NCBI RefSeq assembly: GCF_000003815.2
Contig: NC_049986.1
Coordinates: 17,289,542 to 17,353,541 of the forward strand
DNA: 64,000 bases
Origin: Branchiostoma floridae
Lineage: Eukaryota > Chordata > Leptocardii > Amphioxiformes > Branchiostomatidae
Reading direction: 5' to 3'
Shown here: positions 14,255 through 36,400 of the stretch, one piece after another
Numbering within the stretch: position 1 is the stretch's first letter
Layout: each line of letters begins with the position of its first letter
The notes under the pieces: model-generated
The model's database searches: none
Seen by the model: the letters and a program-made list of their open reading frames with translations, nothing else
Told to the model about the DNA's origin: nothing
Translations under genes and position numbers: made by a program

Positions 14255-14750
14255 TTACCTGCTCAAATACCTGGTCAATGGAATGGCTGCCACGATGCTG
14301 ATGACGTACAGGATCAGACACAGCCTGTCCAGAACCTTCGCCAGCAAGGTGTAGTCGGACACCACCTCCTCGTTCTTTACTGCCTTGGTCAGCTCCTTCA
14401 TCTCGTTCTTCAACTCGGTGAACCTTTCGCCCATCTTCTCCGTTCCGATCTTCACGGCCTTGATCAGATCCTCGTTTCCTTTCCTCACCGTCCTGGTCAG
14501 CTCATTCTCTCCCGAGGATCCAGTGGACCTACGCCCTGTAGGAGGCTGAAACGCCCGTCCAATTATCCTGGATCTTCCACCACCCCACATCCACATTTCA
14601 GGGGCGCTTCTTCCATCCTTAGCCACCATGCCATTGTCGTCAAAGGCGATGGTCAGCTCTACGGCAGCGTGGTTGGTCAGGGGATCGTCACCGCCCGCGG
14701 TACCGGCGCTGGCTTGCTTGTCCTCCATGAGATCTCCCAGAAGTAATATC
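14255..14750 (-). CDS. Chimeric channel exon 16, cytoplasmic loop and M4
   Basis: Reads [20 protein letters not shown], a Gly/Arg-rich stretch, an amphipathic helix ([19 protein letters not shown]) and M4 [20 protein letters not shown], ending RYLSR with TAA at 14257-14255. The amphipathic helix before M4 is the MA helix of nicotinic receptors. Confidence 0.92.
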
Positions 14751-17700
14751 CTATGCAAATGTAAAACATTTTTACAAATGACGTTCCTCATTGTGCAAGT
14801 GTCTGCAAAGCATATCACAGCACTTGTGCGCCTGTAATTGGCCTAAGATTTCTCCATATCAGAAAGTGACTATCGAGATATTCCACATTTTCAGTCGTTC
14901 CTACGAAAACAAGGAATGGATTCAGTGACTCACTACGCCTTTGAATGTTTACGCTATCTTCAGAAGTTGCCATCAAAGGACCAGTAAGTAAGGCTGCAAG
15001 CAAAGGTTCAACTTGACGACTAAGACTGAAAGAAATACATCATCAAGAAGCTTAAGCGTCTTAAATGAATGATTTCATCATATGATTGGATACGACAGAC
15101 GAATTCAGTACCTTGCTGTGTAGCGGAGGAAAATAACCCTCGCCGTGGGAGACAGGCTCCCCTCTTTGCCGTGAATGAAGATGACGGCCATGGTGAGAAA
15201 GAGGAACAGTCCCATCAGGCCCATGCACACGATGATCAGCGTGGCTGGAAAATTACAGATGATAAATCCAGTAATAGCTACCAGAAATTTGACGAAATCC
15301 AATTCAAACGGAATGCATTTAATAATTGCTTGCAAAATGGTATGGTTAAATCAAATGTTTGCACTCACCGAAAAATGGTAGAGCTCCCTTGACAGGAATA
15401 ACGTCTGTAACAAACACAAGAGAGACGACCATAGACAGTTGAATGGTCACTCCGAAGGAGATCCGGTCTCCTTCTCCTATGGGCATGATGAAGGTGATGG
15501 TCATCAGCACAATCAGGATGATGCAGGGTCCAACAGTCGTGGCGATGTGGAATGTGGGGATCCTTGACAGTTGAAGAGAGAAGCACGCCTCCTTCTGATG
15601 TTTTGCGGAGGTCATATCCCTGCGGTACCATTCTCCCTCCGCTTTTGAAGGGGAGTAAGATCCACAAGGATGACGCACTTGTACATCTAATGCGGAGCTT
15701 TCCTCGTAGCATTCTGTAGTTATATTATATGTAGATATATACATCATCATCATCATCCAGGCGTGCTGGTTATATACACATGTGGTACATAGTAAGATGT
15801 ATCTAACGTCTATAAACGCTATACCAAAACGTCAAAGAAGTTTAGACATCCAGGTAATAAGATACGCCAAATAGCAATTACTCAAGCAACTGGATGTGAT
15901 TTGGAAAATCAACATGGGGACATCAGATTTTTCTAGCCTGAGTACCATCCTATTTNNNNNNNNNNNNNNNNNNNNNNNNNNNNNNNNNNNNNNNNNNNNN
16001 NNNNNNNNNNNNNNNNNNNNNNNNNNNNNNNNNNNNNNNNNNNNNNNNNNNNNNNTTTTTAGGGTAGGTAGTGTAAGGAGCCCGTTAGAAATCAAATGGT
16101 ACCCAGGCTAAGATTTTTCCAGTTGCTTGATTAATTGATACTTGGCGTCATACCAGAACATATTGCTACCAGATTTAGAGTCCTATGGAATATCCGAAAC
16201 ACTTACGTATTGTTTGCTCGATTGCCGTGGATGCAGAAAAACAGACTTCGCATTCCATGGTATCTGCGGGGAAGAGGAAGGGGTCAGCATCACACACGGT
16301 GGTGGTCAGCGTTTCCACTCTCCACTGTACCAGACCGGTGCTGCTCACACGCACCGGTACGTCCTTTGGTAGGCCTTGGTGGAGGGGGTTAGCACTGGAA
16401 CGTAGATCACAAAGAGATTCCTGTAACTTTTTATATTCGTTTGTTTGTACTGCATACCCAGTAAAACTGCCACTGAACAGTACAAGATGCATATCTGGAC
16501 AGATTTGCTTCACTCCCACCGGAATGGAACCTTACGCCTTTCCATTACTGAGGTGGGTACTTATACGTGTTCCCGGACCTCCATTTATGTTCTATCCTCT
16601 AACCAAAGCTAGGTACTCATTTTCACATGAGAGAAGTGCCTTTCTAATGGCCTGTCGGGGGTTTTAACATTGTCTCGATTTGTTTCAATTTTGCAACGCG
16701 TCTTGCTTTGGACAAGGAATTTTCCACCAGTCATAGGGGTTGAAACCTTGGCCAAGTAAGGCATACGCCTTTATCTTATAATGAAATAGATTTAATGAAT
16801 GCTTTAATTTATATCAATCTGGTTGATTGAACAAAGCCTTTCCACCTACTTCCTCTTGAGAGTGAATGCTGGGATCCAAATATCCTTGCCAGGAACGCTG
16901 AATGTCTCGATATCACCGTAATACTTTGGGTTCCACTTCAGCCTAGCGTCGTACCATGTCTAATAGGATAAAGATAATTACGTCTCAACAAAACTTGTTC
17001 TCCATGATCCAAAGGGACATAACTAGACATATAGACTACATGTAAAGACTTGAATATTTAGAACATTTATTTAGCCCTGAATAGTATTTTAGGACGTAAA
17101 GTGTGATAGCTGGAAAAGTTGTAATAACGTTTTTTCCGAAATAAGGGGCAAAAGATTGTGAATCGTAATTGTGAACGTCAGTCAATAGAATCCGTTGATA
17201 CGTGGCATGTGCAAAAACTGCCTAACGGACAACTACCTGTTACCGTGGTGTTGGAGGCGTTGATGATTAGTTTTCATGGTGACAGAGAACCATGAGCTCG
17301 AGCTCCTATTGGGTTGAATTTCATAGTACTAAATACTACTAAGCGCATATTGCTATATTTCCAAAAATGGTCTCCTGGCTTAGAGATCGACAGCCAGTGA
17401 CTGAGAGAAATTGTGTACCATAGGCTACATAGGCTGTGCAAACTTACGAAATCGATGATCAAAGAAGCAAGAAGCTGCTCCTTCTTTTCATCCTGAAATT
17501 TGAAACAAACAAAAATCATAGCATTAATCTTGTTGTGCACTGATGCATTTCAGCATCCATAATGATTTTGCTTATCAATAATATTCTTGGAAACGAAAAG
17601 GATCCTCAGATATGTAAGAAATAGTACTTACCAAGTTGACGATTTGTTCCACTTCCCCCCAGAAGTTGATGGTGACATTTTCGTCAGGTGCCAGACTCGC

Positions 17701-20700
17701 ACTGTAGGTCCCTAGTAGCTCCTTTTGCAGCCGTCGCTTATAGTTTACTAAACAGAGGGTGACCAAGCTTGTCAGAAAATGATGTCAAAATGTGATTCCG
17801 TACTGGTATAGCCTGACACGTTTTGCTATGAATTACAATGTGCGTAAGGAGCTTTTCTTGGGCACAGCAGCAATCTGTGGACAATGTTTAACCTAATTAA
17901 TGTCGCCTACATGTATGACAAAGATAGGAAATACGTGTGCAGAATAGCATACAAAAATGATCTCTGTCTTATTTACAGACGACTGGAGGAAAAACAAAAC
18001 AATGTGAATGACCTTTCTACGTCAAGAACTATTCTCAATGATACTTGAGTAAATGTGGAAACCGTGAGAAACCAGAATTAGAAAGTTTAAGGCAAGGACT
18101 AAACACCTGAACAAGTGGGCATGTGATATTCCCAGACGCCGGCGGACGAGGAGTTCCCCTGGCGGCACCTGACTTCCCGAGGATAACCGTACTCCAGCAT
18201 GTAGCCGTCGTTACACGTGTACGTCACCTTTTCTTCCAACAGGTAGAACCTCTTGCTCGGAGTTCTCTTGCCGTAGATTGGAGGCCCTCTGTCTGCACAG
18301 CTAACGGAATCTAAATGTAGTACAATAGAAACATTTTTATTTATTTTTTTTTTTTTTTATTCAGACATAGAGGACATAGAAGACAGACATAGTGGTGACG
18401 CACTCAAGACCACAGGTATGAACATTATATCACTATACATATATACAAAGACATAGACATAACTGAACTAAGCGAAATACAAAATTAAGGAAGATATAAA
18501 TAATACTAACATCAAGTTACCGTCCTCGGTTAAACAAAATGGCCGCTCCAGACCGGTAGGGTTACGGCAGTAGTTCTTGTCCAGGTTAGCCCAGGGGTAC
18601 TCTGCCTTGTAGTTATCATCTGACCACTCAAGACTCTTTGCCCCGGAAGTAGTTGTACTCCATGCTCCACGGTAGTTTGTGCCAGTGCCATGATAGCAAA
18701 CTGAGTATAAAGAAGTGAGCTACCTGTGGGCGAAAGAACCTGCAACCATTGTATTGCAAAACCGGTGGAAGACGAAATACATTTTTTTTCTAACTGCCTC
18801 TCCAATGACCAGGAAAGAAAGGAGTTATTTGAAGAGGTTTGCAAAAAACTCAAGGTTTGCAAAACACACAAAAATTTCGAAACGCTTACCGACGAAAACA
18901 AAACTATAAAGCTGTTGACGTCACATAACCCACTCATCATAGAAAAAGTGGGGTATTTCGTCTTCCACTGCTTCCAGAAAAGAAGTCAAACCCCAAATGC
19001 ATAGATTGTAGCTCTCAGCAGTCAATATCATTGTTAGAATAGTCACTTGTTTACACTTGTCACCATTGTTATCTATACCAAATTACTTTATGTATGTTTA
19101 CTATATCTTCTGTATGCTTTATGTTGCAATTAGCCCTCGGGCAAGAACTTGCAAATAAACTTCTATGTAGTAAAAAGAAGGAAAGACGACGGGAAATTGT
19201 TAACGTTACCTGCCACTAAAGCCACACTACCACATGACAGTCGCCTGGCGAAAAAATATTATTGCAGTTCTGACTCCCACCTTCCGTATCTTTCACTGCT
19301 GGTTCAGGGTTCCAACAGGCGTGCTGTGGTGACGGGAACAGCTCACATGGAGGCAGCAGGTCCCTCATCAGGGCTTCACTCATGCTGAACACTTCCTCAC
19401 ACCAAGAACGGCATGGCAGCAGCTGTCTTCCACTAATTAGGGAAAGAACTAAGCTCAATACCATTCGATGCATATCGTGAGGATATATATATCCAAGGAA
19501 GATTTAACCTCATTGATATGTCACAATGCGATGTTTTACGCGTACTTAAGAGCGAAGAAAACGAATACGTAGAGAATGAATGCCCCAATGGTTGATGGGC
19601 AACATTCCTTGATGACAAATAATTGATTCACGACCAGACGCGGACGCGGCTAGGTACGATATCATTACCCCGGATTCTTATCTATTCCAAGAAGATCTAC
19701 TGCCTACTGAGGGCAAAACTGCATCCGAAGGGCTGAATACTATAGAACTGACACCGGAACCAATGCATCGGATGGTGTTTAGCACTTTGGACCATGTCTT
19801 TCCTGTGGTACACCTTCTTCAGGAGATTTTTCCAGTAGATGTATTGGCTACTTACACGCATGAGGCCGTGATGTTTGAAGACGGACAGTGGTGAAGGTTC
19901 TCTTTAGTCACATTGCATCCTGGAAAAATTACAGTAGATACGAATTCTCGTAACTCCGGATGGTGTTCCCCCGCGATGCTGTAGGAACTGTTGAGAAGCT
20001 CCACGGCAGAGGAGTTCCGTATCTCCTCGGCTGTCGTCTGCTTCATCGGGTTCGGTAACATGGTGAGTCTGCTGTTGAGCTGGAAATCCTCGGGAATTCT
20101 CGAGCACACTGAAAAGTGAATCAAAAGGATTCCATGTTATTCGTCGACACGTCGGCTGATGCAACCTGAAGAAACAAGGCATTGACATTTTACCTGAAGG
20201 TAAAAGGAAGTGGAAAACACTTAAAAGTTTTAGACAGCATTCGCTGTCTTATGACACTTCGCCAGTATCAGAATGCTCTCTAGTGCAACTGCTGCATGGT
20301 CAAACTCAATATCAAGTTGTCAATTCTATTCATTGCTCGAATTCAGAAAAATAAAAGACCACCCGATTCTGGAGTTGATTTCATCTTTAAAGCACTAAAT
20401 TATGCATGCAACCAGAAGTAATTATAGGCACCGATGTGACTGACCCCATGATACGGTAACTTACCACATCTTTCCTCGTCGCTGCGGTCCGGACAGTCTG
20501 AGGTCCCGTCACAGCGTCTCCATGACAATATGCAGGTGTATTTGTCTGCACAGCGGAAATACCCAGGGGAGCACTTCACGATACCTGTGAATGGCAACAA
20601 TTTCTCATTAATGCTGTTTATTCTGCCACACCCAGGGATGTCCCTGTAGCTCAACTGGTAGCAGCCTCATCAGTTCCCGGATGTACTAATGCCAACAGTC

Positions 20701-23700
20701 GAATGTCATTTTGAGATCGCAGATCAGACTTATCGTCCGATCGATTTTCGTGTAATGTGACGGGGATATTAGCCTAACTATCTAACCGTTTTCCTCAACC
20801 TTCTTGACTGTATACATACACATACATAATGTTATATTTCCTAATTATAATCTTTTAAAAAGATAAAGTGACTGTAGGGAAAAAGACCTACCCGAGATAT
20901 GTACTTCACACAAGGTCAGTGTTCGGGAGGGTCCGGGAAGACGGACGCCTACGTAGCGCCCCTTCATCCCCTCACACGGGACGGAAATGGACGGCTGGCT
21001 CACGTCGATTTGATGGTCACCTCCACACTTGGGATTCGTGTGAATGAGCTCGGAATCTCCGATGTGGATGTTGAAGGGGTTGATTCGCTCCTGACAACAG
21101 TCCCCGCGGTTAATGATGATCACTCTGTAGATATCAAAGGCAATGCAATGGCACTTGTCAATAACTGATATATAAGTATTTGGAACACCGTATTAACACC
21201 CTATTTATTTATTTATTTATTGGTTTGGCTGCACCGAACACACAGCCAGGGCTGCCCAACTAGCCTATGGCTATTACAAAGGGCTAGCCCTGCTGACAAA
21301 CACATAAACAATACAGATTAAAAAAGAAGAACATTTGTATGTACATGGCAGGGTCCTCCCCAAAGGATGGAATAAGGGAGGTCCTCCACTATACTCCTAG
21401 CCCAGCTCCACTATACTACTTTTGAAATTTAGTGTTTCTTCCCTATTTTCTTGGTTAGTTTTGCTAAAATCAATGAAAATTCACAGATTTTTGTGCCAAG
21501 TGGCATCACTTTTCCAGTGGGCATTGTGACTATTGTCTGCAAAAACTTGTGAATGGGCTATGATCAAAACAATAGTCATTTTGCCACTTCACAACAATGG
21601 AATCACAATGATATATTATACTTGTAGTATTTGACACCTTCTGTCTTTGCAAAATGAACCCATTTACATGAAAGAGCAGCGTGTTGGTGCGGGTTATTTT
21701 TGCCAGCCCCTCCACTATACTAAAAAATTCTGGGGAGAACCCTGCACATGGTGTAGGATAACTTACATATCATCTAAAATGGAGTATATAACATCATATC
21801 ATCGACAACAATATTTGCAATGAGAGGTCAGGGTCTGTATATACACGTGTATGACTAATTTACCATGCGTAAGGGTTGCCTAGACATTCCCACAGTTTTC
21901 TTTTGAAAGAAAACCCTATATATAAAACCGGTAACACCCTATATCATTGTTCGCTTAGTTGTATTAGTAAGTATATGTATATTTATATGGGGGTATGGGT
22001 GCGTGGGGGTGTGTATAGGTGTATGTGTGTTGGAGGAGTTTGTGCATTTGTGTGTGTGTGCGCGCGTGTGAGTGTGTGCTGTGTCCCCTTGCATGCTTTT
22101 GTTTGTGCGGATTTTATGCTTATGGTATTCACACCAGTTGGATAACACGTTAATAGTTAGTTAACTGGCCACACATGACCTATCGTTGCACACCCATAAC
22201 GTACACATACCTGCCAACCATGTACGATTGACCCAGATCCACCCACCAGCTGGGATCAGCTTCCTGTAACGTCTGTGTACAGGAACCGGTGGACCCATAG
22301 NNNNNNNNNNNNNNNNNNNNNNNNNNNNNNNNNNNNNNNNNNNNNNNNNNNNNNNNNNNNNNNNNNNNNNNNNNNNNNNNNNNNNNNNNNNNNNNNNNNN
22401 GTCAGATGAGCTGCTAGATGTTGAGCTGTTTCCCAAGGGCGACATTTACACCTGTACCAGGCGAGAGGACGGTTAAGGTGCACTCTCACTGCACCTGCGT
22501 CAAGCTTGCGTAACTGCGGGGTTCGTTCGCTGCGTCACTGTTTTGTTATTTTCTCGGATTTTTTATAATTTAGATATTGCGTAATACGTACGGGTATGAC
22601 TTAGAAGACGACGAAATACACAAAAAGTAAGAACATTTGTTCTTTATCTCTGAAATTCGTTAAGTATCTTTCGAATTCCACAGTAACGCATGTGCGACCC
22701 AAGTGCAGTGAGAGTGCACCTTAGTGGCATTGCAACATTTACTGGTCTCCACTAAGCCTTCCGAAGGGGGTGCGGGGATCGTAGAATTCGGCAAAAAAAC
22801 GGGTAGTCCACGCTATCAAAGGTAAATGTTTCCCCACCCCTCTTAGTCGAAGAGTCTACCGTCCCCTGGGTGACAGGTTCTTAAGTATTAAGTAGAAACA
22901 GAATCGAACCTTACCGCAGGATGGCGCGTCACACCAGTCCCACCTCGTGCCGGGGTCCGTGGTGTAGCACCAGACTCTGGGTTCGCCGTCCGGATTCCGG
23001 CAGGCTGAGGTCTGCTCCAATCCGGAGGACGGGTAATTCTCGGGTGTCCTGCTGTGATCGTGCGGTGTCTGACTGTCCCAGCGTTGGCACGTCTTGCCCG
23101 TTTCGGTCACAGAAAATGTTCCTCGGTAGGATACCCCATTTCCTACAATACAGTCTAAGGCGAGGCCTCCGGGTACAAAATGGACAGATACTTTATTTTA
23201 AGTGCCGCTGTTGGAAGGAAAATAAAACTGCCTCGAACTCTCGACGTGGCTGGGCGGCTGCTCTGCGACCTAATATTTGACATATCCCTCAACGGATTGT
23301 ATAGAAAAGAAACCAATCTTTTTACACTTTCTGTGTCTTCTCAGTCACACTTTTACGTTTTGCATGATACACTAGTGCCCAGTGTGAAAGCGAAGAATAC
23401 ACATATCCTATTTAGGTCGCAGTGAGAGCGCAGCGCGTTCGCCGTCTAGTGGAAAGGGGGCCTAGCATACGTAATTTACAATGCGAAGTACAATTTGACA
23501 GTTGTTAGGATGTTGCTAGGTGCCTGGTTGTTGTCACCAATGGCAGCGACAACACCCGACCTCACTGATGCGTTACCAAAAGAATGCGGTCGCGCGATGG
23601 TAACAATATGATTACTATAAAAAAATTGTGGAAATATTTTGAACGTTCTGTCAAGTTTATAGATATTTCGCTGGTTGTGTAAAACTTTTGCAAGCATCTA

Positions 23701-25881
23701 TGATGTGGAATGATGATATTCATACGTCATCAGACGTATATTATTTGCCATTATTTACAATTATTTGTAACATTTTGGCACCCTAAATTCCTTTCACGTT
23801 AGAGTAGTCCAGCCCAAGTCACAGCAGGGGTAGTTATTGTCATTATTTACAAGTGGTCTCAATTCTTTATAGACATTTTCTAAGATATTTCACACTTCTC
23901 AATTATGTAAGCCTTTAGAAATATTCAAGACGTATGGAATATTATATTTCTACTAGGTTGTAAGTTATGGTAGCATTGTAGCATCATGCACATTTTGCAA
24001 CATTTGTAATGGTTCAGTGGGCTGGGCTAGGCGATTTATGAGCCAAATGATTGAGAGCGACAGTATACATCCTCACTGATGCATGCAAAAGGACCCGGTC
24101 GCATGATATCATATGATTACTATAATAATTACGCCGTTGCATACGATGCATCAATTCAAAACAAAAACTCGCTTTCGCAGTGTAGTGCCACAGGTCATCA
24201 TATTTTCAAACGACTTGCATTTCTGCGCGAGGCACTTTAAAACAAGGTGACAGGTCATCGGCTTGTCGGCTTGTCGGAACCAAAGGTTGAGACGTAATGA
24301 CGGAGATCGCGTGTTTGACGAGACACGAGAGCCACACCTCGAGCACTCTTAAGCCCCCTTTGCGATCGCGATGCGCTTTCACTGCGACCTAAATAGGATA
24401 TGTGTATCCTTCGCTTTCACACTGGGTATATCATACAAAATGTAAAAGTGTGACTGAAAAGACAACAGAACACACAAAGTGTTAAAAGACACGTTTCTTG
24501 TCTATACAATTAGTTGAGCGATACGTCAAATTTCAGATCGCAGAGAGAGCGCGGCGAGAGCGCCGTCCCAGTGGAAAGGCGGTATGACGGAGATCCCGTG
24601 TGTGATGAGAAAGGAAAGCCACATCTCGAGCACGTAAAGGTGGGGTCACACCTGCGTATATATTTACGTCCGTATGAGGCGCGCATGGGAGTATTTGCCT
24701 CCACCAGTCTCCACAGGTCGTTGTAAAAATAATACAAATTGGACAAACTTAAACAGGTAACATGTCGGACGAGTTAGCTGGGTCGCTAACCATACTTCTC
24801 GGTCAGCTAACTCATCTGGCATGTTATGTATCTATATTTGTCCAATTTGTACTATTTTTTCCACGACCCCCGGAGCCTGGTAGAGACTAAGAGCTTCATA
24901 CGCACCTCAAACGGACTTGAATATTTACGCATGTGTGACCCCACCTTTAAACTTTAAGCCCCCCTTTCCACTAGACTGCGATCGCGATGCGCTCTCACCG
25001 CGACCTAAATAGGATATGTGTATCCTTCGCTTTCACACTGGGTATATCATACAAAAGTGACTGAAAAGACAACAGATCATACAAAGTGTCAAAAGACTCG
25101 TTTCTTTTCTATACAATTCGTTTAGCGATATGTCAAATTTCAGGTCGCAAAGAGAGCGCGACGAGAGCGCCGTCCTAGTGGAAAGGGGGTATAAAAAGAA
25201 CCCACCACCGCACTTATCGAAAAGAGTAGGGGTTCATCTCTGTGTTTGTTGTTTGTTTGTTTTTGGTTAATTTAAGCCTTATGCTTTCCGGCTATATATA
25301 TACTAACGTCACATTTCCAAACTAGGGCCAGGCCGGGCTGTTTGTGGAAACGATGTATACGTAAAAATATACAGAAATAATGTCTTTTTACGTCGTGTGT
25401 AGTTTGATATCTTTTATATCATACCTTTCGTTCCCGAAAGCTGCCCGGCCGGGCCTCGGTTTGAAAACGTGACGTAAGCCGTATTACGCAACTTCAACGA
25501 TTACGAGGAACAAACAAAAATAAACAGGACTGTCTAAAAAGGGGGTCTAGCTAAGCTTCGGCCTGAGTGTACACTCCTGGTTAGCTATAGGCCTACGTCA
25601 CATTTCCAAACTGGGGCCCGGTCGGAAAGCTTTTGGGAACGAAAAGTATGATATAAAGGACACAAGATGAAAAGAGACTATTCGTGGGCATTATTTGTGT
25701 ATATTTCATGTATACGTTTCTATTTCTCGTTTCCACAAACAGCCCGGCCGGGCCCCGGTTTGAAAACCTTAAACAAATAAAGTGAAGTGAAAAAACGAAA
25801 ATAGACTTTGCAGGTACATTTCCTACCTGAGACAAACAGCACACAGCACGCGGCCCCAGCGACGACAAGCTGGCCTCTCAT
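14255..25881 (-). CDS. Chimeric multi-domain Cys-loop ligand-gated ion channel (16 exons)
   Basis: Sixteen exons join in one frame to about 1036 residues (one exon contains a gap). Order: signal peptide; kringle; F-type lectin domain over two exons; LDLa repeat; Frizzled-like cysteine-rich domain over two exons; cysteine-poor kringle; sushi/CCP; then a nicotinic-type pentameric channel subunit with 13-residue Cys loop, M1-M3, cytoplasmic loop with amphipathic helix, and M4 ending RYLSR-stop. The adhesion modules are bounded by phase-1 introns, the usual mark of exon shuffling. No stop, start or second signal peptide lies between the modules and the channel. M2 ([20 protein letters not shown]) has acidic residues at -1' and 20' and Leu 9', as in cation channels; no vicinal Cys pair in loop C. 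Predicted plasma-membrane channel with a large modular ectodomain; ligand unknown. The main alternative is two genes merged by the model. Confidence 0.85.
15112..15244 (-). CDS. Chimeric channel exon 15, M3
   Basis: Reads [20 protein letters not shown] then [12 protein letters not shown], the third helix and start of the cytoplasmic loop. Phase 1 in, 2 out. Confidence 0.92.
15369..15713 (-). CDS. Chimeric channel exon 14, loop C, M1 and M2
   Basis: Reads [33 protein letters not shown], then M1 [20 protein letters not shown] and M2 [20 protein letters not shown]. Asp at -1' (GDRIS), Leu 9' and Asp 20' predict cation selectivity. No CC pair in loop C. Confidence 0.93.
15840..16137. repeat. Inverted-repeat element with gap inside
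   Basis: Left arm ACTCAAGCAACTGGATGT, then GATTTTTCTAGCCTGAGTAC; right arm is the near reverse complement (GTACCCAGGCTAAGATTTTT, then CCAGTTGCTTGATTAA). The 100-N gap 15956-16055 falls between the arms. Part of the left arm also occurs at 53120-53180. Confidence 0.7.
15956..16055. other. Assembly gap (100 N)
   Basis: Run of 100 N in an intron of the chimeric channel gene. Confidence 0.99.
16207..16394 (-). CDS. Chimeric channel exon 13, Cys loop
   Basis: Reads [15 protein letters not shown] and the signature loop [15 protein letters not shown], with thirteen residues between the cysteines (FPAD in place of FPFD), followed by EVCFSAS. An alternative acceptor 24 bases upstream reads into a stop, so this start is chosen. 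Ends in phase 1. Confidence 0.92.
16850..16959 (-). CDS. Chimeric channel exon 12, loop A
   Basis: Reads [20 protein letters not shown] then [11 protein letters not shown]. TWYDxRLxWNP and the IWIP block are diagnostic; the Asp of the usual WxPD is Ala here. Ends in phase 2. Confidence 0.92.
17448..17492 (-). CDS. Chimeric channel exon 11 (45 bases)
   Basis: Reads [15 protein letters not shown], the strand that in nicotinic receptors reads DEKNQ then W. Short exon with TTTCAG acceptor and GTAAGT donor, phase 0 both ends; such a 45-base exon is typical of nicotinic receptor genes. Confidence 0.9.
17632..17747 (-). CDS. Chimeric channel exon 10, channel N-terminal helix
   Basis: Reads [20 protein letters not shown] then [15 protein letters not shown], matching the N-terminal helix and first strand of nicotinic-type subunits. 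Phase 1 in, 0 out, so the channel is joined to the sushi exon through a phase-1 intron. Confidence 0.88.
18107..18310 (-). CDS. Chimeric channel exon 9, sushi/CCP domain
   Basis: 204 bases, phase 1 to 1. Reads [37 protein letters not shown] and [10 protein letters not shown]: four cysteines and the Trp before the last Cys as in complement control protein modules. Confidence 0.93.
18521..18700 (-). CDS. Chimeric channel exon 8, degenerate kringle
   Basis: Reads [20 protein letters not shown], then [20 protein letters not shown] and FCLTED. Kringle blocks YRG, NYCRNP and FCLT are clear, but the second Cys is Ser (AKSLEW) and the exon ends before the last two cysteines, so the normal disulphide set cannot form. 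Phase 1 to 1, 180 bases against 240 for exon 2. Confidence 0.85.
18719..19172 (+). mobile_element. 5'-truncated LINE, 3' end fragment
   Basis: Encodes [26 protein letters not shown] and [13 protein letters not shown], the Cys/His segment and tail found at the C terminus of many non-LTR reverse-transcriptase proteins, followed by a short 3' UTR ending near TTGCAAATAAACTTC. Inserted opposite to the host gene, its 5' junction is within about 20 bases of the acceptor of the degenerate kringle exon. Confidence 0.7.
19281..19432 (-). CDS. Chimeric channel exon 7, Frizzled-like CRD second half
   Basis: Reads [20 protein letters not shown] then [19 protein letters not shown]. PCRSxCEEV is the most diagnostic block of Frizzled CRDs. 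Phase 2 in, phase 1 out at GAAG|GTGGGA. Confidence 0.85.
19856..20108 (-). CDS. Chimeric channel exon 6, Frizzled-like CRD first half
   Basis: Reads [20 protein letters not shown], then [14 protein letters not shown] and [16 protein letters not shown] and the FxxxxFPGC block resemble Frizzled cysteine-rich domains, although one or two of the ten Cys (for example FVS for FVC) are replaced. Several NxS/T glycosylation sites. Phase 1 in, 2 out. Confidence 0.8.
20465..20584 (-). CDS. Chimeric channel exon 5, LDLa repeat
   Basis: 120 bases, phase 1 to 1. Reads [14 protein letters not shown] then [19 protein letters not shown]: six cysteines and the calcium-binding DCPDRSDE block of LDL-receptor class A repeats. 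Confidence 0.95.
20630..20740 (+). repeat. Possible tRNA-like SINE fragment
   Basis: GTCCCTGTAGCTCAACTGGT then AGCAGCC resembles a tRNA 5' half with a pol III A box. The B box is degenerate (CAGTCGAATGTCA). A related GGGATGTCCCTGG then TAGCAGCCTCA occurs at 8596-8625. Confidence 0.35.
20892..21124 (-). CDS. Chimeric channel exon 4, F-type lectin second half
   Basis: Reads [20 protein letters not shown], then [30 protein letters not shown] and LTLCEVHIS. The RxDx4R segment (RGDCCQER) and the vicinal Cys pair are hallmarks of fucolectin domains. Phase 2 in, 1 out. Confidence 0.93.
21345..21750. repeat. Inverted-repeat element in intron
   Basis: GGCAGGGTCCTCCCCA near 21349 is mirrored by TGGGGAGAACCCTGCA near 21733, and CTCCACTATACT occurs at both ends. 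A non-coding element of about 400 bases. Confidence 0.5.
21960..22110. repeat. GT-rich low-complexity stretch
   Basis: GTGTGTGTGCGCGCGTGTGAG and GGGTGTG variants; simple sequence that produces spurious open frames. Confidence 0.8.
22211..22451 (-). CDS. Chimeric channel exon 3, F-type lectin first half (gap inside)
   Basis: After CTGGTACAG it reads GVNVALGK, the usual start of fucolectin domains; after the gap it reads [20 protein letters not shown] then SYMVGR. Between them SSTSSSSD, also expected, is in another frame, so there is a one-base-class discrepancy next to the 100-N gap, probably an assembly error. The His of the sugar-binding consensus (CTHT in relatives) is Gln here. Confidence 0.8.
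22301..22400. other. Assembly gap (100 N) inside coding exon
   Basis: Run of 100 N interrupting the F-type lectin exon. Confidence 0.99.
22475..22722. mobile_element. MITE-like element with perfect 20-bp terminal inverted repeats
   Basis: AAGGTGCACTCTCACTGCAC at 22475-22494 and its exact reverse complement at 22703-22722 enclose 248 bases without coding capacity. It lies 22 bases upstream (in gene direction) of the acceptor of the F-type lectin exon. Confidence 0.85.
22915..23154 (-). CDS. Chimeric channel exon 2, kringle
   Basis: Exactly 240 bases, phase 1 to phase 1. Reads [43 protein letters not shown] and [10 protein letters not shown]: all six kringle cysteines and the YRGT, CRNPD and WCYT blocks are present. 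Confidence 0.95.
23238..23463. mobile_element. MITE family B, inverted copy
   Basis: Shares with the copies at 24354 and 24959 the blocks GACATATCCCTCAAC, CTTTCTGTGTCTTCTCAGTC, TGCATGATACAC, GCGAAGAATACACATATCCT and the end CCGTCTAGTGGAAAGGGGG, in reverse orientation. Confidence 0.7.
24354..24592. mobile_element. MITE family B, copy 2
   Basis: GCGATCGCGATGCGCTTTCA then CTGCGACCTAAATAGGATAT through to CGAGAGCGCCGTCCCAGTGG. Non-coding. About 49 bases just before it (TGACGGAGATCGCGTG to CTCGAGCAC) are repeated just after it, so flank plus element form a tandem unit with the next copy. Confidence 0.75.
24636..24948. mobile_element. Foldback element C nested between two family B copies
   Basis: AAAGGTGGGGTCACAC at the left is exactly mirrored by GTGTGACCCCACCTTT at the right, with further internal pairing (AATTGGACAAA with TTTGTCCAATT). 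It splits the CTTTAAGCC junction seen before the other family B copy. Confidence 0.75.
24959..25189. mobile_element. MITE family B, best copy
   Basis: Starts CCCCCCTTTCCACTAGAC and ends GTCCTAGTGGAAAGGGGG; terminal inverted repeats extend about 47 bases with few mismatches. 231 bases, no coding. Confidence 0.8.
25306..25474. mobile_element. Foldback element F, copy 1
   Basis: ACGTCACATTTCCAAACTAG at the left is mirrored by GGTTTGAAAACGTGACGT at the right, with internal GGCCGGGC pairing. Confidence 0.65.
25595..25769. mobile_element. Foldback element F, copy 2
   Basis: ACGTCACATTTCCAAACTGG at the left and CCCGGTTTGAAAACC at the right; its interior corresponds to copy 1 in reverse. Both copies are in intron 1 of the chimeric channel gene. 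Confidence 0.6.
25827..25881 (-). CDS. Chimeric channel exon 1, signal peptide
   Basis: ATG at 25881-25879 opens [18 protein letters not shown], a classic short hydrophobic signal peptide, ending in phase 1 at CAG|GTAGGA. Joins directly to the kringle. Confidence 0.8.
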
Positions 25882-27263: not shown

Positions 27264-27480
27264 TTAGAATTTCTGGTACTCGGACCTCTTTTTCCGGTAG
27301 AAGTAACAGGTGACGCCGAAAGCTATGATGACGAAGAGCGTGAGGCACACGGCCAGCGCGACGGTCCCTCCCGAGCTCCCGCCCGACGGGGTGTCGTCCT
27401 GCGGACACTGGTCAGTCTCCCCAAACTGTCCGTCACGACCGACGCCGAACGGCTGCGCTTCGAGCTCCGCAATCTTCATC
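27264..27480 (-). CDS. LAMP: LAMP exon 9, membrane helix and tail
   Basis: Reads MKIAELEAQPFGVGRDGQFG then helix VALAVCLTLFVIIAFGVTCY and tail FYRKKRSEYQKF with TAA at 27266-27264. The distance from helix to the terminal YxxF is about ten residues, as in vertebrate LAMPs. Confidence 0.93.
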
Positions 27481-30400
27481 CTGAAACACAAAACATTTAT
27501 ATTAGAGACCACCAGACAGATCAAGGAAATCAACCTGACTTTGACGCAGCAAAGTGAGTGGACATGAAACAAGGCTAGCTAACAGGAAGTGTCAGGATAA
27601 GCATGTGAGAAGTCTTTGAGAGACTCGAAATTATGACAATTCAGACAAACTAGCAGTGCAGCCAACAAGACATCAGTTAAAAGCTAAAGTGTACGAAAGA
27701 ATTGTAACTAATTATGATAGTAATAAAAGATCATAAGAGAAGGAAGGAAGGAAGGTCGGGAGATTTCACTGTTGTACCTTTTCCTCATCCTCATATCAAT
27801 TGAGGAAAACATTTGGAAACTCTAAGAGAAAGATTGAAATAAACAAATGTCAATTTTCTTATTAGTTGTTGTTTTTAACAGGTTAGCATGTACAATGAGT
27901 AAACGTACGTCACGTTGGTGTCCACCGGGATGACGGTGGGAGTGGCACACGTCAGGGCCCTGCCCACCTTCCCGTGGTAGGCGTCCACGGTGAGGTTAGA
28001 GGCGCGACCAGCCGTCCCACAGTCCCGGCACTCCGGAAACCCGTCCTCGTTCACCGTGTACTCCACCTGGATGTTGTTCAGCTTGAAGCTGGTACTGTCC
28101 GTCCCGATGTTTTTGGAGAATTTGATAGTTACCGTGTACCTGGAAGAAACAGTAACGCGTCAGTAATTGCTTTAAGTAATAATCTTGTATTTCGCTCCCA
28201 AGGTCAGCCCTTAACAATAGCCAATGGATAGTTGGGTTTGCTTGGCTGTACTGCCAAACAAATGAATAAACAGTGCATGCAGGTGATCCTTGCAAATTTG
28301 GCTCCATCATGAGAAAGACTTACTGTGAAACCACAAGACGTACCATTTGACAAATATATATGATTGATAATTGATAATTGATAATGATGGAATAGTTATA
28401 GACTGATAATTTCATAGGCGTTTGCCGAAAAGTTGATATCAACGCAATGTTAGAACTAGAAAGGCCGACATTTGCTTGAGAGCAAATACAGCATATTTCA
28501 GCCATACCCCTTCCCACGCAACATTGGACTGTTCCAAATCACCCCTGCGCAAAAATGGAACATCCTCTTAACAGTACATTATCCCCCAAAGTGGACTGGT
28601 ATTGTGAATTGATTCCAGGTAAAGACAGAGCTTGCTTCTATTTTTCAGAAAATGACAATAATCACACCTTCCATTCAGAAAATTTTCATCATGACTGAAA
28701 ATTGTTGAATGACTTCATGTAATGTCATTAACAATTTTCAGTACGGTAACTAGGCGTAAGTTTAAAAAAGTATAAGCTCCTTGTGATGTGGGTACATTTA
28801 TTATTGCAGTGAACTTTTTTATTCAAGTAGGGCATACGATTTAATAATTATCAAGCAGGTGCAGGTACTGTAGGAGCGTTTGTTTTCTTCAAGCTGTAAA
28901 ACTGTTAAACTGTTTTACTTTGTATGCAATCAACCATCGAGCCTATTCTTATTTTAGTTTAACAACTTCCTGCCAGACCCGGAAGATACGATTGAACCTT
29001 GTTCGAGGATTTATTTTCGTCTGTCTGGTCGGTCTGTTCATACCCTGGCGCTGAGAGTGTTTTATTGGGCTGAAACTCTGGCAGTTTAAAGTTACTTACA
29101 ATTTAAATGTTCAAAGTTTATGTCAAACAACAACAGCACTAGGAAATGTGGCCACTATAGACAGGTGGTCACTATAGAGAAAATGCAGATCTATTGACTA
29201 GGAGCCATACGTTACACATGATTTCAGTACACTGATCATTTAAATCATATAAACATTGCACAGGTAAGCCAATTGTTTAGATGTACAATTAAGTTCAAAT
29301 AATTCTGAAGAGAAATATTGATGAGAAAATAATCATTCTTGCCACTGTCTAACTTATAATTACGTATCAAAACTAAACGCAGATTTTCTAACTAACGCAC
29401 CTTTCGCCGACTTCATCAAAGGACCGCCGGCTATCAATCAAACACGGCTGTTGATTAGACTTAGAGTTTCAAACAGTCATGTGCTGTGTGCATGTTTTAC
29501 ATTGCTTGGACCTTCTTTCCTACAGCGGTGCTTCTACAAAATATTTAGACTGTAACACTGAGTCCCACATGTTTTATAGAATAGAATTTGACGCAGAACA
29601 GCGTTTTTTGCTGGGTATTTTTCTTGAAACATGTCCGTGGGAATATCAGCGAGGCGGCGACGTAGGGATATCAGACCGTCAACAAAAGTCGCACGGCGGC
29701 TAACGGCGCAGCGAAGATACTAGCGCTATAAATAAGCGCTTCAACTAAGGATGGCAACCCGTACAATATTTTTGTATACTGTTGAGCTAAGTAAAGTTTG
29801 TTGTTTATGAGGTTTTAGTTGTCTTTGAAGCTTTGACCCGAAATATTTTAAAGTCAAACTGCTGAAGAGAAGTAAGTTACTGCTACGATTATCGTAGATA
29901 TGGCCCTAAAAAACTGATAAAAGAAGCCTTCTCAATAGTCTAAAATGCAAGAGCTTCCGGGGGGGCTTCGCCCACCTGGGTCCCCCCCCACAGTGGCCCT
30001 GCCCCTGGACCCCGCCAGGGACATTCGGCGGCCCCCGGACCCCTGTCCGACGCTTTGACAAAATCCTGGCGAGAAGTCTGTACGGCCTGAGTCTTCAAGT
30101 TAACGTATTGTGTGGTCCCGCTTATAAATATTAATTAGCCTTCGCTTTCCTCTTCGCTGATTGGCTGAACCATTAATTGAATTAACTCTTCCTGCAGGCT
30201 AGACGCAGGTGCAGATGTCGGCTCTGTGGGGTGAACGTCCGAAAAGTCATGGCATGCCGCATGGAGAACGAAAGAAAACCAATTTCCCCTAAAAAAAGTG
30301 CTGTAATTAAGCCTTTTACAGTACTTTATGCCAAAAATTTTACTTGGATCATTTTACCAACTATATTATGCCTATCTATACCAAATGTTACTCATATATA

Positions 30401-33400: not shown

Positions 33401-36400
33401 TGACCTAGGATGGGGGACACTAAGAACAGAATAACAGCTAGTATATATCTTGCAGAAAGCTAGACAAGGCCTCCTAGCCCAGCCGGTCAATACGTTTTGT
33501 TAATGAATGATCTTTATTTGCATGTTCCTGCCCATGTGGGCTAAATGCAGCAAATCCCATGATGGGATACTAATAAATGTTAATAAATACGTAGTACCCG
33601 CGCCAATCGTGCAACAGTCAACCGTACTCGTACAAACATATCACCTTTAACAAAGGTTGCAACATACACTCGTATACGTATTTTCCGCGAACAAGTCAAC
33701 ATTAACATTGGAATCTATCAAGTTGGCGTATAGGTGATCTTGTAACATATCTATGGCTATGGAAACATTTCGAAAGGCAAGAAGCTGAATACATAACAAT
33801 ACTATTAAAAATACAGATGGAATATATTTCAATAGCTTGTGCATCTTTCTCTACCCTACTCACCATGCCACTGCTGTTCGTGACCTTCCAGTCGCCGGGT
33901 ATCGGCAGGGGCATGTAGGCGGTAGTTGAGGGGCCGGGAGGCCGGGGAGTTGTGGTCAGATCCTCGGAGCAGACTCTGGGCGCGCCGAACTTGTTGTCCT
34001 TCACCTCGAACGGCTGCAGCTGAACCCCGACGAAGTTCAACGTCGCGACGGTTCCGTCCTGTAAGGTCTGCTCACTCTGACACATGTAAGACTGTCCTAC
34101 CGGCGCGCTGAACTGGTCCTTAAGGTCGTTCATCGTGATGGTCTTCTGGGAGTCGGTCTCGTTGGCGTCTGGGAAGTCGTCTTGGGTCAGGTTGTAGTTA
34201 AAGACGAGGCCGCTGAGACTGAAGACGTTCCTGACCTTGGTGAAGACCAGGGCGAGTGTGTAGGGAGCCTGGTCATCAGCGCCTACAGGCCACCTCATAC
34301 TGGGCAACAGCAATATAACGTATATGATATAAGTTAAATGTACACAGTGTCTTAATTGCTGCTGTTCTAAACATATTTTAAAAAGCTTGACTTCTGTCGA
34401 TCATATATTTATCCGTTGTATTATACTTTATCACTAGATTTTTGTTCCACTTATTATTAGAAAACCTTATTTCTGTCAACAACACTGTTTGTTAATAAAC
34501 AATTTGTCCGACAAAATTGTGTACGTGCCTAGCCACTTGCGACCATTCCAAATTGTTAATTTGATGGACAGTCACACTCACGCGGCACAATCTCAATTTT
34601 GAGGGCCTGTGTGGGGGCCTGTAGTTCTTGCCCCGATATTCTATGATAGAAATCCATTGAGCACGTTAAGAAATTTACTCACAGAAGCGACGCCTCTCCC
34701 TGTCCGTTGTCACATTCGCCGCCCACGTCAGCGGACGGGGACAGCTGGAAGTCCGCTAAGTCCTCGTCCCCATCTCTGGAGTCGTACTGGATCTTGAACT
34801 GCAGACCGAGAGAAGCCAGGATGCACATGTTTCCCGAGTCGTCAGTCACGTTGAAGTGACCTGTCAAATGTATGTACACATGAGCAAAGGAAGGAAGGAA
34901 GGAAGGAGGGAAGGAAGGAGGGAAGGGAGACAGGAACGAAAACAGGAAGAACGGAGGGAGTAAGGGAGAAAGAAAAAGAAATAAGGAGGCGGAAGAGGGA
35001 AGAAATTAACGTTTGAAGTGAGGAAAGAAGGCATGATGGAAGAAATGAAGATATGAAGGAAGGAAGGATGGGTGGAAAGAAGGAAGAAATGAATGTATTC
35101 AGATGGGAATGAAGGAAAAAGGAAGGGATAGAAAGTGGGGGATGGAAAGGACTGAATACAAGTCCGAAATCCTGCTAAATACGCAGATGATGTTTCGTAT
35201 GTAGACCCTCCCAGATGAACAAATGAATGAAAAAAATTACTATAGCGAAATTGAATATCAAGCATACAAGTATATCTTTTGCGTTCATTCAGAAGTACCT
35301 TACCGACTGTGGGCGGTGGAAGCGGCGGGGCAGGCCGGGTGGTGGGGGGAGGTGTGGTGCCCGCGATGTCCTCCGGGCAGACTTTCGGCTCCCCGAACTC
35401 ATCTCCCTTCACTTCGAACGGCTGGAGCTGAACCCCCACAAAGTTGATGGTGGCGACGTTTCCCACCTGTATGGTCTGCTCGGTGCGGCACTGGTAGGAC
35501 TGACCTAGCGTATATACATATGGCAAGAAATTGGACATATTTGAACGCAACGCACTTCTAAACCCAACAGAAAACGTAACATAGAATGATATTGCACCCA
35601 AGGGAATTGGCCGATTTTTGAAACATTATTAGCTCTAATAGCAGGTGGTGTGTGTCTCATTAAGAAGTGATCATCAATGGACCAGAGTCATTAAGGGTTA
35701 GTGCTGTTGTTTTAAACATAACATAACACTGAATTCCCAAGGAAGACATGAAATGAACCCCTGGTGCAGGTCTTTTGGGGAGCGAACTGTAGATTGTTAG
35801 ATAACTGCAGATAGAACTATCTAAATTGATATCCTGTAGTTTTGTAAGGTTTTCTCAGACTGTTAGGGTTGGAAATGCCAATTATTCTGCAGTGTCCAAT
35901 ATCTTGCCACTACTGACAAATATCTCAGTGAAGCTGGAGGGCTGCATGAGCAACCTCCATGGAGGACCTCTGTGGAGCTCCTCCATGGAGGTTGCTCGTG
36001 CAGCCCCTTCTCTACTGACCTAGCGGCGCGCTAAACGTGTCCTGGATGTCGTGCTTCTCAATGGTCTTTATCGCGTTGGTCTCGTTAGCGTTGGGGAAGT
36101 CGTCCTCGGTCAGGTTGTAGTTGAGCACGATGTCGTTAAGGTGGAATTCCGAGGCTTGGGAGTCCTTCTTGAAGGACAGGGTGAACTGGTAGTTGGGTCC
36201 TTCATCGCTCAGCGGCCATTGGAGGCTGGGAAAGAGAGTAGTTCATCTGATATAAGTGCAACGACATCAACCGCACAAACGATTAAGATAACAGTGTAAT
36301 TTCTGTTCAAATCCAACAGGAGGGATTCAATAAACATGTAAGGAATTGAAGAATTAAGTAAGATATTATATAATATTTCCCTTTTCACGTCCGTACTACC

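What the first reader, a model, noticed from the sequence alone, without database searches (positions are those of the whole stretch)
14255..25881. A Cys-loop ion channel fused to a kringle, F-type lectin, LDLa, Frizzled-like, kringle and sushi ectodomain
Sixteen exons close in phase from a signal peptide through six adhesion-type modules into a nicotinic-type channel with all four membrane helices. Pentameric channel subunits normally begin directly with their own ligand domain; I know of no described family with this module set. The modules are flanked by phase-1 introns, as expected of exon shuffling, and the channel N-terminal helix is itself entered through a phase-1 intron. A sugar, Wnt-like or matrix ligand could position or gate the channel; five copies would carry thirty extra modules around one pore.
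Basis: partly seen in the sequence, partly recalled or inferred. Interest (0 to 1): 0.92.

Follow-up and report, generated by a model that had tools for sequence, protein, structure and literature searches.

The report
Ion channels wearing interchangeable recognition heads
In amphioxus (lancelets), one gene joins a nicotinic-type ion channel to a stack of extracellular binding modules, and it belongs to a large, little-described lancelet family in which the channel stays the same while the outermost modules are swapped.

Summary
The fusion is real but not unique, and this copy is not intact as assembled. The minus-strand gene (25881-14255) has 16 exons: signal peptide, kringle, F-type lectin, LDLa, Fz-like, kringle, sushi, then a complete Cys-loop channel. 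Two claims fail: the first lectin exon holds an assembly gap and a frame break, and kringle 2 has lost its end. A second copy in the same genome (contig C256) is open from kringle 1 to the stop, 1,006 residues; between copies Ka/Ks is 0.13, with no amino-acid change in 325 codons from ligand domain to M3. All 120 rows are Branchiostoma. Of 138 proteins with the ligand domain, 124 have sushi directly before it. In DNA, 19 of 20 other top-ranked loci have sushi upstream on the same strand; 0 of 3 more distant channels do. A constant core carries 24 N-terminal variants among 74 proteins. The pore looks cation-selective; the acetylcholine site is lost. Best reading: lineage-specific channels with a constant effector and swappable recognition heads; gating by a head ligand is inferred. 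One paper names a possible member.

The parts
25827..25881 (-). exon 1: start codon and hydrophobic signal-like leader, ends phase 1
   Evidence: P0114 starts with a near-identical peptide
22915..23166 (-). exon 2: kringle 1 (six cysteines)
   Evidence: Pfam PF00051 91.3 bits
22211..22451 (-). exon 3: F-type lectin, first part; holds the N gap and a frame break in this assembly
   Evidence: intact on C256 4411-4582
22301..22400 (.). assembly gap (100 N); 29 bases lie here in the C256 copy
20892..21124 (-). exon 4: F-type lectin, second part, RxDx4R and vicinal CC
   Evidence: PF22633 56 bits; 3cqo FBP32; motif scan
20465..20584 (-). exon 5: LDLa
   Evidence: PF00057 38.3 bits
19856..20108 (-). 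exon 6: Fz-like CRD, first part
   Evidence: BLAST and profile match to Fz domains of relatives
19281..19432 (-). exon 7: Fz-like CRD, second part
18521..18700 (-). exon 8: kringle 2, truncated and lacking Cys2, 5 and 6 in this haplotype
   Evidence: PF00051 52.4 bits; intact on C256 7288-7500
18107..18310 (-). exon 9: sushi/CCP, four cysteines
   Evidence: PF00084 16.7 bits, below cut-off; relatives pass
17632..17747 (-). exon 10: channel N-terminal helix and start of the ligand domain, entered in phase 1
17448..17492 (-). exon 11: 45-base ligand-domain exon
16850..16959 (-). exon 12: 110-base ligand-domain exon
16207..16394 (-). exon 13: Cys-loop C-x13-C with FP
15369..15713 (-). exon 14: end of ligand domain, M1, M2 pore helix
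   Evidence: helices in a relative's model; identical 90-residue stretch on C256
15112..15244 (-). exon 15: M3 and start of the intracellular loop
   Evidence: relative
14255..14750 (-). exon 16: intracellular loop, M4, stop codon
   Evidence: PF02932 58.5 bits over M1-M4

Best explanation
This is a Branchiostoma floridae gene for one subunit of a pentameric, cation-permeable channel of the nicotinic/5-HT3 lineage. Phase-1 modules were inserted by exon shuffling into the phase-1 intron between the signal peptide and the channel. It belongs to a lancelet family with a constant stalk (LDLa, Fz-like, kringle, sushi) and constant channel, and a variable outer head (here kringle plus F-type lectin; elsewhere C-type lectin, CUB, MAM, GON, EGF, YWTD). 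Most likely mechanism: five subunits make one pore; the head binds a glycan or protein on a surface or in the matrix; binding captures the channel and shifts it towards opening through the stalk and ligand domain, because the acetylcholine pocket is no longer there. Shown here: gene structure, family, recurrence at other loci, purifying selection, pore residues, loss of the acetylcholine site. Inferred: pentamer, ion selectivity, ligand, gating, cell type.
For: Gene structure and domains. Second copy open for 1,006 residues and Ka/Ks 0.129 overall, 0.193 ectodomain part, 0.056 channel, 9 synonymous and 0 nonsynonymous changes over the 325 codons from ligand domain to M3. Family: 120 of 120 rows Branchiostoma by name and 120 of the 120 listed (of 125); order and constant spacing (102 of 125 spacings exactly 2 residues). 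Linkage read from DNA: 19 of 20; 3 of 3 second-group loci, 0 of 3 more distant channels. 42 TM-exon matches at 71-100% identity and 14 near-full-length ones at 53-63% in the genome. Pore: -1' Asp in 89 of 89, 9' Leu in 88 of 89. Acetylcholine-site positions replaced. Fold of a relative. Precedent: nAChR-derived chemotactile receptors of octopus (passages) and a bacterial channel with an added N-terminal domain (abstracts in listing).
Against: No transcript, protein or current was seen. This haplotype carries a frame break and a damaged kringle 2. Models of this gene, P0114 and P0155, stop after the third ligand-domain exon. Of 22 ectodomain hits, 7 have no channel residues and 7 more only part of the ligand domain. 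The lectin's fucose-binding His is Gln here. Nothing shows that any head module binds a ligand or gates the pore.
Confidence: 0.55

Rival explanations
1. Cis-anchor: the modules do not gate the channel but hold or cluster it at a synapse or matrix site. They do in one chain what separate proteins do elsewhere: LEV-9 (sushi), LEV-10 (CUB, LDLa), NETO (CUB, LDLa), ROR/MuSK (Fz, kringle; recalled). Another subunit supplies the transmitter site.
For: Sushi, CUB and LDLa proteins act in trans on ionotropic receptors (PMC9083331, passages). The constant stalk and loss of the transmitter site fit a structural subunit.
Against: Variable lectin, CUB and MAM heads over many loci fit recognition of varied ligands better than one fixed anchor. 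The same review says the LDLa domain of LEV-10 is dispensable for clustering. The ROR/MuSK link is recalled and not supported: a relative's Fz domain best matches sizzled/Frizzled, with no ROR or MuSK among 43 matches, and its kringle best matches plasminogen, ROR2 being 60th of the 60 shown of 116.
Confidence: 0.28
2. Two adjacent genes fused by prediction: a secreted module protein and a separate channel.
For: A published warning of convergent prediction errors in lancelets. 7 of 22 ectodomain hits lack channel residues; 13 of 138 ligand-domain proteins have no module before it.
Against: Same order on the same strand at 19 of 20 further loci read from DNA and 3 of 3 of the second group; constant two-residue spacing; no leader-like frame in the intron before the channel. 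In 11 of the 13 bare models the ligand-domain match begins within the first 31 residues, as in cut-off models (no signal-peptide predictor run).
Confidence: 0.04
3. This haplotype is a decaying or null allele of a functional gene (not exclusive of the best explanation).
For: Frame break in the lectin exon and loss of 11 residues and three cysteines in kringle 2, both absent from C256.
Against: The two missing bases sit beside an assembly gap, where sequence is weakest. The remaining 888 codons are open, and no nonsynonymous change separates the copies in 325 channel codons.
Confidence: 0.3
4. The channel half is an inert scaffold, chaperone or dominant-negative subunit.
For: Transmitter-site residues lost and four extra conserved cysteines in the ligand domain.
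Against: Pore-lining positions are near-invariant over 89 sequences and unchanged between copies.
Confidence: 0.1

Closest known systems
Nicotinic acetylcholine / 5-HT3 receptor subunits
   Same: Cys-loop, ligand domain and M1-M4; cation-type M2 with -1' Asp and 9' Leu (numbering recalled). The 45- and 110-base exons resemble nAChR exons 3 and 4 (lengths recalled).
   Different: Six added modules; the aligned loop A Tyr, loop B Trp, loop D Trp and loop C Cys pair are all replaced (loop names recalled). Amphioxus-specific nAChR expansions are already noted in PMC6354393 (passages), where 'kringle' does not occur; whether they include this family is not known.
Cephalopod chemotactile receptors
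   Same: Lineage-specific expansion of nAChR-derived channels that no longer use acetylcholine (PMC11526382, passages).
   Different: I know of no added ectodomain modules in them (recalled); relationship not tested; ligand unknown here.
DeCLIC (bacterial pLGIC)
   Same: An N-terminal domain added before the ligand domain of a pLGIC (abstracts in listing).
   Different: Bacterial, another domain type (recalled); structures and Ca2+ effects reported there, nothing measured here.
LEV-9, LEV-10, NETO
   Same: Sushi, CUB and LDLa modules acting on ionotropic receptors (PMC9083331, passages).
   Different: Separate proteins there; one chain here; no kringle or Fz named for them in the passages seen.
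Branchiostoma architecture with Neur_chan_memb, 269420_PRF0 (Banyai and Patthy 2016, PMC4967905)
   Same: A lancelet-unique architecture containing the channel domain; possibly this family.
   Different: Listed in a supplementary table I could not read; modules and function not discussed in the section seen.

Membership tests
Cys-loop pentameric ligand-gated channel | Cys-loop of 13 residues with FP | tested here: met
   [15 protein letters not shown]; both Cys in 89 of 89 aligned sequences
Cys-loop pentameric ligand-gated channel | Ligand domain and M1-M4 | tested here: met
   PF02931 103 bits, PF02932 58.5 bits; helices in a relative's model
Cys-loop pentameric ligand-gated channel | Pentameric assembly and conduction | not testable with these tools
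   needs expression and recording
Acetylcholine-gated receptor (agonist-binding subunit) | Aromatic box and vicinal Cys pair | tested here: not met
   positions replaced in the alignment to nAChR alpha-4 (5kxi_A); the three commonest residues of the loop A, B and D columns over 89 sequences include no Tyr or Trp
Cation-selective pLGIC | Acidic -1' ring and 9' Leu in M2 | tested here: met
   Asp in 89 of 89, Leu in 88 of 89; selectivity itself not measured
Fucose-binding F-type lectin | His plus RxDx4(R/K) motif (recalled) | tested here: not met
   RGDCCQER present, His replaced by Gln in window, C256 and P0114; 5 of 13 relatives' discoidin-like domains have His and RxDx4R, 4 of 13 lack RxDx4R altogether
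Frizzled-type CRD | Profile match and ten cysteines | tested here: inconclusive
   no Pfam hit here; strong profile match to relatives' Fz domains that Pfam accepts; four of ten cysteines missing
Kringle | Pfam match and six cysteines | tested here: met
   kringle 1 yes; kringle 2 passes Pfam but has six cysteines only in C256, not in the window
Sushi/CCP | Pfam match and four cysteines | tested here: inconclusive
   four cysteines, but 16.7 bits against a cut-off of 20.7 and no hit up to E 0.01 for C256; of 10 relatives scanned 7 are above the cut-off, 1 at it and 2 unmatched

The most novel reading that the evidence does not exclude
Lancelets carry an ionotropic counterpart of an immune or chemosensory receptor repertoire: dozens of channels with one conserved pore and stalk and shuffled lectin, CUB, kringle, MAM or GON heads, so that recognition of a surface molecule is turned directly into an ion current without a second messenger.
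Probability: 0.3. Interest if true: 0.92.

Novelty: new variant of a known kind. Interest (0 to 1): 0.8.

Why it matters
Animal pentameric channels are textbook small-ligand receptors whose chains begin with their own ligand domain. A large family that keeps the pore, loses the transmitter site and gains shuffled recognition modules would be a new way to couple adhesion or pattern recognition to ion flow. It also gives a case supported from DNA at many loci, not only from gene models, in the dispute over whether lancelet domain novelty is real or a prediction artefact. The fusion links sushi, CUB and LDLa modules to a channel in one chain, where other animals use separate clustering or auxiliary proteins.

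Tried and rejected
Two-gene reading: tested by linkage at other loci, spacing, and search for a start in the sushi-channel intron; rejected. 'Unique protein': rejected. Fz domain by direct PDB search of the window sequence: no hit up to E 1; settled through relatives. ROR or MuSK origin of the Fz-kringle pair: not supported. A kringle-2 end hidden in the intron: not seen in the three-frame reading; the stretch is replaced in this haplotype. Other family genes in the window: none found by tblastn with nine members at E 1e-3. Rooting of the tree failed (the chosen outgroup took in all 89 sequences), so only the local grouping was used. Literature: searches returned nothing; some searches gave 3, 4 and 1 papers; one search listed 20 of 52. 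In titles, abstract starts and passages looked up I saw no description of the family.

A sushi search and an Fz search of the whole genome did not complete, so I cannot say how many sushi or Fz exons lie without a channel. I fetched 23 of the 54 other best channel places (the 20 best-ranked of 40 in the first group, 3 of 14 in the second), not all.

Full report
What is there. On the minus strand, 16 exons run from a start codon at 25881 to a stop at 14255. They encode a hydrophobic leader, kringle, F-type lectin (two exons), LDLa, Fz-like domain (two exons), kringle, sushi and a channel of seven exons. All seven boundaries between modules, including leader to kringle 1 and sushi to channel, are phase 1; introns inside the lectin and Fz domains are phase 2; channel introns are phase 0, 0, 2, 1, 1, 2. 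From the assembly gap to the stop the frame is open for 888 codons including the stop. Pfam accepts both kringles, a discoidin-like domain, LDLa, ligand domain and membrane domain; sushi is below cut-off and Fz is missed. The lectin part best matches FBP32 in the PDB (3cqo, E 6.9e-38; a fucolectin, recalled).

The first lectin exon holds 100 N, and its front part reaches TAG in frame, so the exons do not all close in phase. Kringle 2 stops short at an alternative GT and lacks Cys2, Cys5 and Cys6, which leaves unpaired partners (kringle pairing recalled).

A second copy. The window lies at G000:C8:17289542-17353541 in a genome of 513,431,437 bases. The C8 and C256 contig lengths, 25,575,982 and 39,874, equal the contig lengths given for B. 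floridae proteins P0157 and P0155, and P0114 of B. floridae is 97.4% identical over 506 aligned positions. Contig C256 holds a copy, probably the other haplotype. Its 15 exons from kringle 1 to the stop read 1,006 residues with no stop inside; lectin and kringle 2 are intact. The first base of that frame was taken from the window's exon 1, because the signal exon was not found on C256, whose first base aligns downstream of it. Over 883 codon pairs, from the second part of the lectin to the stop and so without kringle 1, Nei-Gojobori Ka/Ks is 0.129 (32.5 synonymous, 14.5 nonsynonymous); ectodomain part 0.193, channel 0.056; ligand domain to M3, 325 codons, 9 synonymous and 0 nonsynonymous. This is one pair of sequences, but it points to purifying selection on both halves. 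The window's two missing bases lie beside the gap, so error or a null allele are both possible.

The family. A search with the channel part of the long protein listed 120 proteins, all named Branchiostoma. A profile search listed 120 of 125 above threshold, again all Branchiostoma, but scored only the 7,996 candidates sharing most words, and candidates are limited in length. Local profiles seeded from Pfam coordinates were run on the 155 distinct proteins of the two searches. Of 138 with a ligand domain, 124 have sushi directly before it, 1 has kringle and 13 have nothing; 113 have kringle-sushi-ligand domain, 93 also Fz, 79 also LDLa. Spacing from the preceding module is exactly 2 residues in 102 of 125. 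In 74 proteins with the whole core and membrane part, 24 N-terminal variants precede it, counting 'none' (11 proteins); 15 of the 24 occur once and some may be prediction errors. In a tree of 88 of the 120 proteins plus the window, the window sits in a group of nine sequences with support 0.98 that includes B. lanceolatum, B. belcheri and a hybrid assembly; the tree could not be rooted cleanly. So the group is probably older than those species.

Reading from DNA. In the genome, the M1-M2 exon matches 42 places at 71-100% identity (E at most 1.0e-29) and 14 near-full-length places at 53-63%, of 123 matches; shorter fragments of similar identity are not counted, and some places may be haplotype copies, as C256 probably is. 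I read up to 8.7 kb upstream of the 20 best-ranked of the 40 other places of the first group; they lie on eight contigs, nine of them on C16. Sushi lay upstream on the same strand in 19 of 20, kringle in 18, Fz in 17; the miss on all three has 7,778 N of 9,870 bases. Three of three loci of the second group show Fz, kringle, sushi, channel within about 6.2 kb; three of three more distant channel loci (31-38% identity, 6.4-6.7 kb read) show none of the three. The intron before the channel holds two ATGs, neither opening a leader-like frame by eye.

Evidence on the other side. P0114 and P0155 end after the third ligand-domain exon, and P0141 of a hybrid assembly after the fourth. Of 22 ectodomain hits, seven (P0157, P0158, P0160, P0161, P0163, P0164, and P0165, labelled partial) have no channel residues, one of them ending in an EGF-like stretch; seven more have only part of the ligand domain (P0114, P0141, P0149, P0155, P0156, P0159, P0162) and eight go on into the membrane part. 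Shorter secreted products cannot be excluded. There are no transcripts here.

Channel properties. Over 89 aligned sequences, M2 is near-invariant: -1' Asp 89, 0' Arg 88, 9' Leu 88 (prime numbering recalled). Against nAChR alpha-4 in the PDB alignment (5kxi_A), the Trp of loop D, Tyr of loop A and Trp of loop B are Ile, Lys and Ser, and the Cys pair of loop C has no counterpart (loop names recalled). Four further cysteines are conserved in at least 86 of 89. So it should pass cations and should not bind acetylcholine at the usual site.

Modules. The Fz domain of relatives P0080 and P0100 passes Pfam's cut-off, and the window-type profile matches theirs over 112 columns, hhalign probability 100 in a one-to-one comparison. 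By eye, the window type lacks the 2nd, 3rd, 4th and 8th cysteines, which are two whole disulphide pairs if Fz pairing is as I recall. The lectin keeps RxDx4R and the vicinal CC but has Gln for the fucose-binding His in window, C256 and P0114; of 13 relatives with a discoidin-like domain five have His and RxDx4R, and four lack RxDx4R, so that set is mixed.

Structure. A relative, P0004 (kringle-LDLa-Fz-kringle-sushi-channel), modelled with 50 sequences gave mean pLDDT 70.4, pTM 0.45. LDLa to M3 is mostly 70-92, kringle 1 is below 50, and relative placement of modules is not reliable. The best folds in the PDB are muscle nAChR subunits, with 5-HT3A at rank 10.

How it works. Three introns are common to all vertebrate nAChR genes (section read, PMC6354393). 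That intron is the likely entry point for phase-1 modules (inference). A constant pore and stalk with swapped heads, many loci and a lost transmitter site point to recognition at the head coupled to the pore; an anchor is the main rival. Octopus chemotactile receptors show that nAChR-derived channels can become sensors (passages, PMC11526382). LEV-9, LEV-10 and NETO show that sushi and CUB/LDLa proteins can cluster or tune receptors (passages, PMC9083331). DeCLIC shows that an added N-terminal domain can occur before a pLGIC ligand domain (abstracts in listing).

What is in print. Searches showed me no description of the family. PMC4967905 (passages and one section read) names one Branchiostoma-unique architecture with Neur_chan_memb and warns of error convergence; its supplement could not be read. 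PMC6354393 (passages) notes amphioxus-specific nAChR expansions without the word kringle. PMC6071037 (two passages), PMC4284660 and PMC12373286 (term look-ups without a match) and PMC4795631 (two passages) do not mention it in what I saw. Subscription literature was not covered.

Noticed in passing
window 33705-35625 (-), with a possible membrane tail at 27264-27578 (-): Two ORFs match the LAMP luminal domain (PF01299); the 27.3 kb ORF ends in a hydrophobic stretch and short basic tail but had no Pfam hit.
   Followed up: partly
window 40040-41569 (+): Open 510-residue ORF with a reverse transcriptase domain (PF00078), probably a LINE-type element.
   Followed up: no
window 43458-43892 (+) and 44290-44838 (+): A ubiquitin-like domain (PF00240) and a second ORF with similar words but no Pfam hit.
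   Followed up: no
window 58489-58920 (-): Exon-like ORF matching the DS-like domain of discoidin domain receptors 1/2 (PF21114).
   Followed up: no
L013 1247-3648 against window near 23213: C256 carries about 2.4 kb absent from the window just upstream of kringle 1; the 1,247 aligned bases before it are 99.9% identical, against mostly 94-98% elsewhere (one 272-base stretch 83%).
   Followed up: no
window 18311-18520 against L013 7501-7683: The kringle 2 to sushi intron aligns poorly between the two copies, with the break at the exon's last codons: a local replacement.
   Followed up: partly
L032 5059: A membrane-domain-like match lies between the sushi and ligand-domain exons of a relative's locus; possibly a partial duplication.
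   Followed up: no
P0050, P0069, P0074: B. belcheri models of this family carry a reverse transcriptase domain, and their ligand-domain matches are split.
   Followed up: no
window 24957-25152 and 24362-24545: Both stretches match one place on C256 at about 81%, so the first intron seems to hold a dispersed repeat.
   Followed up: no
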